Positions 46,258 through 48,511 of a stretch of 64,000 bases of DNA are shown piece after piece. A program made the translations under genes and the position numbers. This DNA comes from Microbacterium sp. zg-Y818 (GTDB taxonomy: Bacteria > Actinomycetota > Actinomycetes > Actinomycetales > Microbacteriaceae), in the NCBI RefSeq assembly GCF_030246905.1, contig NZ_CP126741.1, positions 3,162,001-3,226,000 on the forward strand, given 5' to 3'. The notes beneath the pieces were generated by a model. The model saw only the letters and a list, made by a program, of their open reading frames with translations. It was not told the origin of the DNA and ran no database searches. The number at the start of each line of letters is the position of its first letter. Within the stretch, counting starts at the first letter, position 1.

Positions 46258-47619
46258 CTACACCGGCGCCATGTCGGTGAACCGCGAGAAATGACCCTGG
46301 AAAGCGATCTCGATGGTCGCGGTCGGGCCGTTACGGTGCTTCGCGACGATGAGGTCGGCCTCGCCGGGGCGGGTGTCCTTGTCGTACACCGAGTCGCGGT
46401 GCAGCAGCATGACCATGTCGGCATCCTGCTCGATCGAGCCGGACTCTCGCAGGTCGCTGACCTGCGGACGCTTGTCGGTGCGCTGCTCAGATCCACGGTT
46501 CAGCTGCGACAGTGCGATGACGGGCACCTGAAGCTCTTTCGCGAGCAGCTTCAGCGCACGCGAGAACTCGCTGACCTCCTGCTGACGCGACTCGACCTTC
46601 TTGCCGCTGGTCATCAGCTGCAAGTAGTCGATGATCACCATGCGCAGCCCCACCCGCTGCTTGAGTCGACGGCACTTGGCGCGGATCTCGACGAGCGTCA
46701 TGTTGGGGCTGTCGTCGATGTAGAGCGGGGCGTCGTTGATGCGGCCGCGTGTCGCGGCGATGGTGGTCCAGTCGCGCGAATCCAACGTGCCCTTGCGCAT
46801 GTTCTGCAGCGGCACCGCGCCCTCGGCGCTCATGAGGCGCATGGCGATCTCGCTGCGTCCCATTTCCAGTGAGAAGAAGATCGTCGGCATGTTGTGCTTG
46901 ATGGCCGCGGCGCGCGCGAAATCGAGCGCGAGCGTGGACTTTCCCATGGCGGGTCGGGCGGCCACGACGATCATCTGACCGCCGTGCAGGCCGTTGGTCA
47001 GCTCGTCGAGCTGGGCGAACCCGGTCGGGATGCCGGTCATCGAGCCGTCCCGACCGCGCGCTGCCTCGATCTCATCGATCGCGGAGGTGACGGCGATCTC
47101 GAGCGGAACGTAATCCTCCGCGGCCTCGGCACCGGTGACCGAGTAGATCTCGGCCTGCGCGTTGTTGACGAGTTCCACGGCCTCGCCCTGGCCGGAGTAC
47201 CCCATCTGCACGATGCGGGTGCCGGCCTGCACGAGGCGGCGCAGCAGCGCCCGCTCGGAGACGATCGTGGCGTAGTAGCCGGCGTTGGCTGCGGTCGGCA
47301 CGATCGAGGTGAGCGAGTGCAGGTAATCGGCACCGCCGGCGCGCTGCAGCTCGCCCGTCTTGATCAGCTCGTCGGTCACTGCAACGACGTCTGTCGGCTC
47401 GCCGTGCGAATACAGGCTGAGGATCGCCTCGAAGATCAGCTCGTGCTTGGGCACATAAAAGTCGGCCCCGCGCAGCGTCTCGATGACGTCGGCGACGGCG
47501 TCCTTCGACAACAGCATGCCGCCCAGCGCGCTCTGCTCCGCGAGGACGTCATGCGGCGGCGTGCGCTCGTGCTCACGGCGTCCGCCGAGCCGTTCGTCGG
47601 AGATGTCAGCGATGGACAC
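46258..47619 (-). CDS. dnaB: Replicative DNA helicase DnaB
   Basis: A 453-aa hexameric helicase: N-terminal domain PHDVLAEQSALGGMLLSKDA, RecA-like core with GLHGGQMIVVAARPAMGKSTLALDFA (Walker A), LRMVIIDYLQLM (Walker B) and DLRESGSIEQDADMV. It unwinds DNA ahead of the fork. The sequence is uninterrupted: no intein at the P-loop or elsewhere, unlike mycobacterial DnaB. GTG start 10 nt after GGAGGT. It is separated from rplI by a terminator and 439 bp holding DnaA-box-like sequences. Confidence 0.96.
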   Translation of the reverse strand: MSIADISDERLGGRREHERTPPHDVLAEQSALGGMLLSKDAVADVIETLRGADFYVPKHELIFEAILSLYSHGEPTDVVAVTDELIKTGELQRAGGADYLHSLTSIVPTAANAGYYATIVSERALLRRLVQAGTRIVQMGYSGQGEAVELVNNAQAEIYSVTGAEAAEDYVPLEIAVTSAIDEIEAARGRDGSMTGIPTGFAQLDELTNGLHGGQMIVVAARPAMGKSTLALDFARAAAIKHNMPTIFFSLEMGRSEIAMRLMSAEGAVPLQNMRKGTLDSRDWTTIAATRGRINDAPLYIDDSPNMTLVEIRAKCRRLKQRVGLRMVIIDYLQLMTSGKKVESRQQEVSEFSRALKLLAKELQVPVIALSQLNRGSEQRTDKRPQVSDLRESGSIEQDADMVMLLHRDSVYDKDTRPGEADLIVAKHRNGPTATIEIAFQGHFSRFTDMAPV

Positions 47620-47668
47620 GCAGCCGTACCTCCGTCATTTTCGGGTGTCGTCGGGGTGGGACACATTC

Positions 47669-47697
47669 ACGCTATGCACGGCCACCGACACTCGCAA
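47669..47697 (-). promoter_or_regulatory. Candidate dnaB promoter
   Basis: Minus strand TTGCGA (47692-47697), exact 17-nt spacer, TAGCGT (47669-47674). The perfect DnaA box at 47705-47713 starts only 8 bp upstream of the -35, a position suited to direct regulation. Confidence 0.55.
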
Positions 47698-47704
47698 CCA
47701 AGCC

Positions 47705-47943
47705 TGTGGATAACTATGTGGAAAGTCTGCGTGAAACGCCGCCAACCCTGTGTACAACCCCTGTGGAAAACGCCCGGGATACAGGAATCGAGCAAACGTG
47801 ATTTCTCGATTGACCTGGGATTTATTTGTTCACAACCTGTGGATGGGATTGTGGTTGAAGTACGCGTTGAAGGTTGGGGACGGCGTACCACGTTATACAC
47901 AGCCGCACACCCTCGGCCCGCATCGGATGCCGCCTGTGGAAAG
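47705..47943. promoter_or_regulatory. Cluster of eight DnaA-box-like sequences upstream of dnaB
   Basis: Consensus TTATCCACA. Complementary-strand boxes: 47705-47713 (TTATCCACA, perfect), 47717-47725 (CTTTCCACA), 47749-47757 (TTGTACACA), 47762-47770 (TTTTCCACA), 47838-47846 (CCATCCACA), 47935-47943 (CTTTCCACA). Plus-strand boxes: 47826-47834 (TTGTTCACA) and 47893-47901 (TTATACACA). An AT-rich stretch lies at about 47800-47835. Together with the dnaB promoter and the rplI terminator this accounts for the whole 47620-48058 intergenic region; I see no gene in it. Confidence 0.75.
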
Positions 47944-48058: not shown

Positions 48059-48511
48059 TTACTTGGCGGCGACCACCTGCAGCGTGATCACGGCGGTGAG
48101 GTCGTCACGCAGGCGAACGGTCGCCTCGTGCTCGCCCACGGACTTGATCGCCGAGGTGATGTGGATCTTGCGCTTGTCGAGCTCGCCGAGCCCGGCAGCC
48201 TTGACCGCGTCAGCGACGTCACCGGTCTTGACCGAACCGAACAGACGACCCTCGTTGCCGGCCTTGACGGCCAGACGAACCTTGGTCGACTCGAGCGAGT
48301 TCTTCAGGGCCACGGCTTCTTCGTGGTCGTGGATCGCGCGCGACTCGCGGGCAGCGCGAATCGACGCCACCTGCTTCTCGCCACCGCGCGACCACAGCAC
48401 TGCGAAGCCCTGGGGGATGAGGTAGTTGCGGGCGAACCCGTTCTTGACCTCGATCACGTCGCCGGCGCTTCCGAGCCCGGCGACCTCATTCGTGAGAATC
48501 AGCTTTGCCAT
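48059..48511 (-). CDS. rplI: Ribosomal protein bL9
   Basis: A 150-aa L9: N-terminal domain [37 protein letters not shown], the long connecting helix and the C-terminal RNA-binding domain ending [13 protein letters not shown]. It binds 23S rRNA domain V and helps keep the reading frame. Last gene of the four-gene operon. Confidence 0.97.

What the first reader, a model, noticed from the sequence alone, without database searches (positions are those of the whole stretch)
47669..47943. Eight DnaA-box-like sequences between rplI and dnaB
A 240-bp stretch contains one perfect and seven near-consensus boxes in both orientations plus an AT-rich segment, starting 8 bp upstream of the dnaB -35. It may be a DnaA-controlled dnaB promoter, a DnaA-titrating site (datA-like), or a secondary or relic origin. 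The main oriC is expected beyond trxB, about 25 kb away, so this density is unexplained.
Basis: partly seen in the sequence, partly recalled or inferred. Interest (0 to 1): 0.7.

Follow-up and report, generated by a model that had tools for sequence, protein, structure and literature searches.

The report
DnaA box cluster before dnaB
A run of binding sites for the replication starter protein DnaA sits directly in front of the gene for the replicative helicase DnaB, is kept in most of the related actinobacteria examined, and most likely lets DnaA set how much helicase is made; the arrangement is new in detail but of a kind already seen in mycobacteria.

Summary
The boxes are real: five sites within one mismatch of TTRTCCACA in 197 bp (one perfect) plus four at two mismatches; 0 of 2000 simulated gaps reach five. 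At least two boxes stand before dnaB in 36 of 36 genus, 34 of 34 other family, 26 of 39 order, 43 of 52 class and 64 of 80 named Mycobacteriaceae loci, but 2 of 13 deeper-phylum loci. In genus and family a TTG-N19..22-TANNNT promoter follows the proximal box (36 of 36, 27 of 34; about 0.1 in shuffles), not in order or class (0 of 28, 3 of 51). In three f15 genomes with rplI 4.6-9.3 kb from dnaB the boxes are at dnaB. DnaA binds upstream of dnaB in M. tuberculosis (in vitro) and M. smegmatis (ChIP-seq), and one DnaA variant binds there less and under-expresses dnaB (PMC7738170). Best reading: a DnaA-regulated, probably DnaA-activated dnaB promoter that also holds some DnaA. A mainly datA-like role is less likely, a second origin unlikely. 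A composite element with fixed 10-base spacing recurs from genus to class.

The parts
46258..47619 (-). dnaB, replicative DNA helicase (GTG start at 47619)
   Evidence: NCBIfam TIGR00665 DnaB, 529 bits, above cut-off; ORF
47669..47674 (-). predicted dnaB -10 element TAGCGT (17-nt spacer to the -35)
   Evidence: Conserved in the genus alignment; TTG-N19..22-TANNNT behind the proximal box in 36 of 36 genus loci. The consensus scanner (TTGACA/TATAAT) did not call it
47692..47697 (-). predicted dnaB -35 element TTGCGA
   Evidence: not called by the scanner
47705..47713 (-). DnaA box, perfect (TTATCCACA), proximal, 7 nt between it and the -35
47717..47725 (-). DnaA-box-like CTTTCCACA (2 mismatches)
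   Evidence: TCCACA is conserved at this place in the genus alignment
47728..47741 (-). conserved non-box element CGGCGTTTCNCGCA between box pairs
   Evidence: GCGTTTCNCG in 20 of 38 genus (2 duplicates included) and 20 of 34 family upstream regions, 0 of 39 order, 0 of 52 class
47749..47757 (-). DnaA box TTGTACACA (1 mismatch)
47762..47770 (-). DnaA box TTTTCCACA (1 mismatch)
47811..47833 (-). composite element GTGAA-N10-CCAGGTCA (general form GTGRA-N10-SCAGRTCA); GTGAA is half of an inverted box pair; lies in the AT-rich segment
   Evidence: N10 spacing in 26 of 161 genus-to-class upstream regions (genus 9 of 36, family 1 of 34, order 6 of 39, class 10 of 52), 0 of 13 phylum; all other spacings from 2 to 20 together 3
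47826..47834 (+). DnaA box TTGTTCACA (1 mismatch)
47838..47846 (-). DnaA-box-like CCATCCACA (2 mismatches), inverted partner of 47826
47850..47858 (-). DnaA-box-like TCAACCACA (2 mismatches)
47855..47875 (-). genus element AACCTTCAA-N6-CTTCAA
   Evidence: CCTTCAA in 33 of 38 genus upstream regions (2 duplicates included), 7 of 34 family, 0 of 39 order, 0 of 52 class; the full direct repeat in 15 of 38 genus; one copy in the window
47893..47901 (+). DnaA box TTATACACA (1 mismatch)
47935..47943 (-). DnaA-box-like CTTTCCACA (2 mismatches), farthest from dnaB
48059..48511 (-). rplI, ribosomal protein L9, upstream neighbour on the same strand
   Evidence: NCBIfam TIGR00158 L9, 125 bits, above cut-off; ORF

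Best explanation
The stretch is the control region of the dnaB gene. Shown here: a conserved array of DnaA boxes, the nearest at a near-fixed distance upstream of a conserved sigma-70-type promoter for dnaB (predicted start near 47662, box centre near -47). Inferred: DnaA binds the array co-operatively, holds a DnaA complex next to RNA polymerase and, because no site within two mismatches overlaps the predicted promoter, activates dnaB, so that helicase supply follows the level or nucleotide state of the initiator. Inferred: by holding several DnaA molecules about 25 kb from dnaA the array also removes some DnaA from the pool, as a side effect or secondary role.
For: Density far above chance. 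DnaA-box cores are among the top de novo 8-mers in genus, family, order and class upstream regions and not in the 13 deeper-phylum ones. In 40 further order and class regions the box has 99 matches against a mean of 3.7 and a maximum of 13 for 200 permuted motifs. Box-to-promoter geometry in 36 of 36 genus and 27 of 34 family loci, shuffled mean 0.09 and 0.14. In three f15 genomes rplI is 4.6-9.3 kb upstream of dnaB and dnaA 213-239 kb away, yet 5 boxes lie at dnaB, and the rplI loci hold only one lone site, inside rplI of G228. PMC7738170 (section 9 read in full, passages elsewhere): upstream of dnaB is one of five top DnaA-bound regions in M. tuberculosis IDAP-seq and, as homologue, in M. 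smegmatis ChIP-seq; DnaA variant I282T binds less there and uniquely under-expresses dnaB. 64 of 80 named Mycobacteriaceae loci carry >=2 boxes there, 4.4 per kb against 0.25 per kb on the coding side.
Against: No binding or expression data exist here for this organism. The promoter geometry is not seen in order (0 of 28) or class (3 of 51) loci that had a box on the dnaB strand, so the promoter link is shown only within the family. All 8 f12 genomes (0 boxes in 7, 1 in 1) and 3 f7 genomes (0, 0, 1) sampled have dnaB without a cluster, so it is dispensable. 22 of 91 order and class loci and 16 of 80 Mycobacteriaceae loci have fewer than two boxes. The mycobacterial expression effect is one DnaA variant and could be indirect. 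Activation rather than repression is inferred from geometry.
Confidence: 0.72

Rival explanations
1. Mainly a DnaA-titrating or DnaA-inactivating site near oriC, comparable to E. coli datA or the oriC-proximal clusters of B. subtilis and Streptomyces; its place before dnaB is incidental.
For: About 25 kb from dnaA; nine sites at <=2 mismatches, and 5 at <=1 mm against 4 in dnaA-dnaN. PMC4585315 passage: clusters close to oriC in B. subtilis and S. coelicolor can repress untimely initiation. The boxes extend 240 bp, more than one promoter needs. In f12, where dnaB lies 267-349 kb from dnaA, the boxes are gone.
Against: Boxes lie at dnaB, not rplI, and are kept when dnaB is 213-239 kb from dnaA (f15), while two f7 genomes with dnaB 39 and 29 kb from dnaA have 0 and 1. 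The promoter geometry is unexplained. No IHF-type site was tested.
Confidence: 0.18
2. A secondary or relic replication origin.
For: Box cluster in both orientations plus an AT-rich segment of 62% AT in 40 bp, equal to that of dnaA-dnaN.
Against: dnaA-dnaN holds boxes in this genome and in 29 of 30 loci examined, own included. No turn in cumulative skew at the site, although the local skew is noisy and does not mark dnaA either. In most relatives the boxes point one way.
Confidence: 0.03
3. The sites are bound mainly by another regulator, and the resemblance to DnaA boxes is misleading.
For: Further conserved elements that are not boxes (CGGCGTTTCNCGCA, AACCTTCAA-N6-CTTCAA, GTGRA-N10-SCAGRTCA) lie in the array, so a second protein probably binds.
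Against: The commonest conserved words are exact DnaA-box cores, with the high-affinity forms TTATCCACA and TTGTCCACA (box forms in a PMC4285127 passage); DnaA binding is measured at the mycobacterial counterpart (PMC7738170).
Confidence: 0.05

Closest known systems
DnaA-bound region upstream of dnaB in M. tuberculosis (Rv0057) and M. smegmatis (PMC7738170)
   Same: Same gene, same side; f22 of this survey is Mycobacteriaceae (its L104 DnaB stretch is 100% identical to one from M. interjectum) and carries boxes there
   Different: Binding and an expression link were measured there, nothing here. Boxes in named Mycobacteriaceae are fewer (mean 2.45 at <=1 mm, 16 of 80 with fewer than 2); the promoter geometry is seen only in the present family. 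M. tuberculosis and M. smegmatis themselves are not among the 80 loci
DnaA-regulated dnaB of Caulobacter crescentus (PMC8203912 passage)
   Same: Predicted DnaA boxes upstream of dnaB, which was placed in the DnaA regulon
   Different: Distant phylum; no sequence relation tested
Streptomyces coelicolor oriC-proximal DnaA-box clusters (Smulczyk-Krawczyszyn 2006; cited in PMC4585315, paper itself not held)
   Same: Clusters of boxes near oriC that restrain initiation; one of them may be the dnaB-upstream cluster (recalled cosmid names, not verified)
   Different: Which cluster is which gene region could not be checked; function there is on initiation frequency
E. coli datA (PMC5835720 passages)
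   Same: Two consensus and four one-misfit boxes that titrate DnaA
   Different: datA also acts by DnaA-ATP hydrolysis (IHF dependence recalled); the cluster here is tied to a gene promoter; no IHF site tested

Membership tests
DnaA-regulated dnaB promoter | DnaA boxes upstream of dnaB above chance | tested here: met
DnaA-regulated dnaB promoter | Boxes placed at a regular distance from a dnaB promoter | tested here: met
   36 of 36 genus, 27 of 34 family loci; not in order (0 of 28) or class (3 of 51). Promoter itself is predicted, not mapped
DnaA-regulated dnaB promoter | DnaA binds the region | not testable with these tools
   Published for mycobacteria (PMC7738170)
DnaA-regulated dnaB promoter | dnaB expression changes with DnaA | not testable with these tools
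   One DnaA variant in M. tuberculosis (PMC7738170)
oriC-proximal titration cluster (datA-like, B. subtilis and Streptomyces clusters) | Many boxes close to oriC | tested here: met
   About 25 kb from dnaA
oriC-proximal titration cluster (datA-like, B. subtilis and Streptomyces clusters) | Kept near oriC independent of the neighbouring gene | tested here: not met
   At dnaB in f15 though 213-239 kb from dnaA; in f12 not left behind at rplI, which stays 25-29 kb from dnaA. Only 1.5 kb either side of rplI was looked at
oriC-proximal titration cluster (datA-like, B. subtilis and Streptomyces clusters) | Removal raises initiation frequency | not testable with these tools
   Needs a deletion strain
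oriC-proximal titration cluster (datA-like, B. subtilis and Streptomyces clusters) | IHF or equivalent site (datA) | not tested
   No search for such a site was made
Replication origin | DnaA-box cluster | tested here: met
Replication origin | AT-rich unwinding element beside the boxes | tested here: inconclusive
   62% AT in the best 40 bp, the same as dnaA-dnaN; no runs of two or more TA[AG] in either region
Replication origin | At the GC-skew turning point | tested here: inconclusive
   No turn at 47.8 kb, but the local skew is noisy and does not mark dnaA either

The most novel reading that the evidence does not exclude
Across the class Actinomycetes the space before dnaB carries an undescribed composite control module: an inverted DnaA-box pair and, ten bases further on, a fixed SCAGRTCA word (GTGRA-N10-SCAGRTCA), with a second, unknown protein bound beside DnaA at one helical turn. 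It would couple initiator activity to helicase supply, and together with a second conserved site at the crgA 3' end it would form a class-wide DnaA circuit outside oriC. For it: the ten-base spacing occurs in 26 upstream regions against 3 for all other spacings from 2 to 20. Against it: it is exact in only 26 of 161 genus-to-class regions and in 1 of 34 family regions, and the word is not confined to dnaB.
Probability: 0.3. Interest if true: 0.65.

Novelty: new member of a known kind. Interest (0 to 1): 0.45.

Why it matters
Whether and how the initiator sets the supply of the helicase that it loads is, as far as the searches here show, little studied in actinobacteria. A conserved, compact array with a regular promoter gives an easily tested case in harmless laboratory strains, and families that have lost it (f12, f7) are natural controls. 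It also suggests that DnaA sites outside oriC that were mapped in mycobacteria have counterparts in another family.

Tried and rejected
Relic or secondary origin: judged unlikely for the reasons given under rivals. RNA element in the gap: Rfam gave one sub-threshold match (STnc310, 18.9 bits against 40). Consensus promoter scanner: no hit for TTGACA/TATAAT; the promoter call rests on conservation. GTGGA-N10-SCAGGTCA as a dnaB-specific word: the scan of 197 class genomes found it in 104, but the reversed control pattern also matches widely and many listed hits lie far from dnaB, so the word alone is not specific; the own-genome hit (C1:1751370) is also not at dnaB, because the window's copy reads GTGAA. 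Family f87 hits that looked like a cluster left near the origin: the one checked (G718) lies inside a 516-aa open reading frame and the other three fetched have the same coding-like flank; no box cluster stands around them; rejected. DnaA-trio-like runs: none in the gap or in dnaA-dnaN.

Rows dropped or uneven: the and 47 genus set of 38 holds two duplicates (L061 = L001, L064 = L007), removed; the 37-row alignment holds one (L064). The genus counts include the window's own genome. Order-level rows were partly chosen by me because dnaB had moved (8 f12 and 3 f15 of 39), so 26 of 39 is not an unbiased rate. Loci given by the searches are the best-scoring ones. Upstream positions run from the first aligned DnaB residue, up to about 17 residues inside the protein. 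In several of the 13 deeper-phylum loci rplI ends 67-151 bp before dnaB, so their 560 bp is partly rplI coding. Distances between dnaA and dnaB were read from listed rows; for f12 dnaA, dnaB and rplI were all listed for 5 of 8 genomes. In one search two dnaA-dnaN stretches were cut to about 100 bp by contig ends (L131, L133) and no dnaN was found in four. The list was capped, so perfect boxes were not counted genome-wide. Searches for papers on such a cluster; besides mycobacteria and Caulobacter none was found, but they cover open-licence papers only, and the key Streptomyces and B. subtilis papers are not held.

Full report
Setting. The window is G000:C1:3162001-3226000 of a single 3,234,984-bp contig.

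The observation. In 47705-47943 there is one perfect TTATCCACA, four sites with one mismatch and four with two. The genome has 302 sites at one mismatch or less. Five in 197 bp has a Poisson probability of 1.7e-11; no simulated gap of the same dinucleotide make-up reached five (0 of 2000) or, at two mismatches, ten (0 of 500). dnaA-dnaN of the same genome holds four sites at one mismatch or less.

Conservation. With duplicates removed, 36 of 36 genus loci (own included) and 34 of 34 other family loci have at least two boxes within about 560 bp upstream of dnaB. For order-level loci it is 26 of 39, partly picked because dnaB had moved; for class-level loci 43 of 52; for deeper classes of the phylum 2 of 13, where the gap before dnaB is often short. 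De novo 8-mers give the same picture: DnaA-box cores are at or near the top in genus, family, order and class, and are not among the top words in the 13 deeper-phylum loci; in the family GAAACGCC ranks equally high. In 40 newly fetched order and class regions the box has 99 matches; 200 permuted motifs have a mean of 3.7 and a maximum of 13. In 80 named loci of Mycobacteriaceae and near kin 64 have at least two boxes; density is 4.4 per kb upstream and 0.25 per kb on the coding side. In the alignment of 37 genus rows (one duplicate) the boxes are conserved far better than most of the sequence between them.

Link to the promoter. The proximal box is followed by TTGCGA, 17 nt, TAGCGT. With 3-9 nt between box and TTG, TTG-N19..22-TANNNT occurs in 36 of 36 genus loci and 27 of 34 family loci, against 0.09 and 0.14 in shuffles; in order and class loci that have a box on the dnaB strand it is 0 of 28 and 3 of 51. 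In window coordinates the -35 is 47692-47697 and the -10 is 47669-47674. The box centre would lie near -47 from the predicted start. No site within two mismatches covers the promoter, which fits activation better than repression; this is inference.

Natural experiments. In three f15 genomes dnaB is 213-239 kb from dnaA and rplI is 4.6-9.3 kb from dnaB; five boxes lie at dnaB, and the rplI loci (1.5 kb either side) hold one lone one-mismatch site, inside rplI of G228. In five f12 genomes with all positions listed, rplI stays 25-29 kb from dnaA while dnaB lies 267-349 kb away; in all eight f12 genomes sampled the cluster is missing at dnaB (0 boxes in seven, 1 in one), and the rplI loci hold none in seven and one in the eighth. 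In three f7 genomes boxes number 0, 0 and 1, although in two of them (0 and 1) dnaB is 39 and 29 kb from dnaA by the listed rows. So the array goes with dnaB rather than rplI, does not need oriC nearby, and can be lost.

Published evidence. PMC7738170 (section 9 read in full, other passages seen): in vitro DNA affinity sequencing with M. tuberculosis DnaA gives five top regions, one being upstream of dnaB; ChIP-seq in M. smegmatis gives homologues of the same five; [quoted passage not shown] PMC8203912 (passages): in Caulobacter predicted boxes lie upstream of dnaB, which is in the DnaA regulon. PMC4585315 (passage): clusters near oriC in B. subtilis and S. coelicolor restrain initiation. The Streptomyces paper itself is not held; that one of its clusters may be the dnaB-upstream one is recalled from cosmid names and unverified.

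Other elements in the array. Three conserved words are not DnaA boxes: AACCTTCAA-N6-CTTCAA in the genus, CGGCGTTTCNCGCA in genus and family, and SCAGRTCA ten bases behind an inverted box half. The last has a strict spacing: with duplicates removed, GTGRA-N10-SCAGRTCA occurs in 26 of 161 genus-to-class regions (9 of 36 genus, 1 of 34 family, 6 of 39 order, 10 of 52 class) and 0 of 13 phylum regions, while all other spacings from 2 to 20 together give 3. The shorter word CAGGTCA is in 28 of 52 class regions where about 8% is expected. By itself the word is not specific to dnaB. Its meaning is unknown; a second bound protein is the simplest guess.

Origin reading. The AT-rich segment is no richer than that of dnaA-dnaN (both 62% in 40 bp), cumulative skew does not turn at the site (local skew is noisy and does not single out dnaA either), and dnaA-dnaN holds boxes in 29 of 30 loci examined, own included. 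A second origin is therefore unlikely but not excluded by experiment.

Verdict. A conserved DnaA-box array that most likely is the DnaA-regulated control region of dnaB, with DnaA holding as a possible second effect. The kind is known from mycobacteria; the extent across the class, the promoter geometry in this family and the composite element were not found described in the searches listed under Tried and rejected.

Noticed in passing
L032:13558-13611 (G000 C1), next to crgA at L032:13642-13878 minus: A perfect DnaA box plus a palindromic pair of box-like sites sits just downstream of a crgA-like gene (NCBIfam CrgA, 74.9 bits, below its cut-off of 141). In 27 of 30 family loci (own included; the best 30 of 39 genomes with a match) at least one box (<=1 mm), and in 22 of 30 at least two, lie within 300 bp downstream of it, mean 2.27 against 0.23 upstream. 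PMC7738170 maps a mycobacterial DnaA site between Rv0010c and Rv0011c (that Rv0011c is crgA is recalled) and says it has no obvious correspondence in other species; this may be one.
   Followed up: partly
Families f12 and f7 (L169-L176, L180-L182): Sampled members of two families in the same order lack the dnaB boxes; in f12 dnaB lies hundreds of kb from rplI and dnaA.
   Followed up: partly
47855-47875 minus, and genus loci: AACCTTCAA-N6-CTTCAA, a conserved genus-level word inside the array that is not a DnaA box; no known regulator assigned.
   Followed up: partly
L243 (CAMCWJ010000145.1): A contig of a record titled Bifidobacterium breve MAG encodes a DnaB stretch 93% identical to the Mycobacterium query, so it is probably a contaminant contig.
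   Followed up: no
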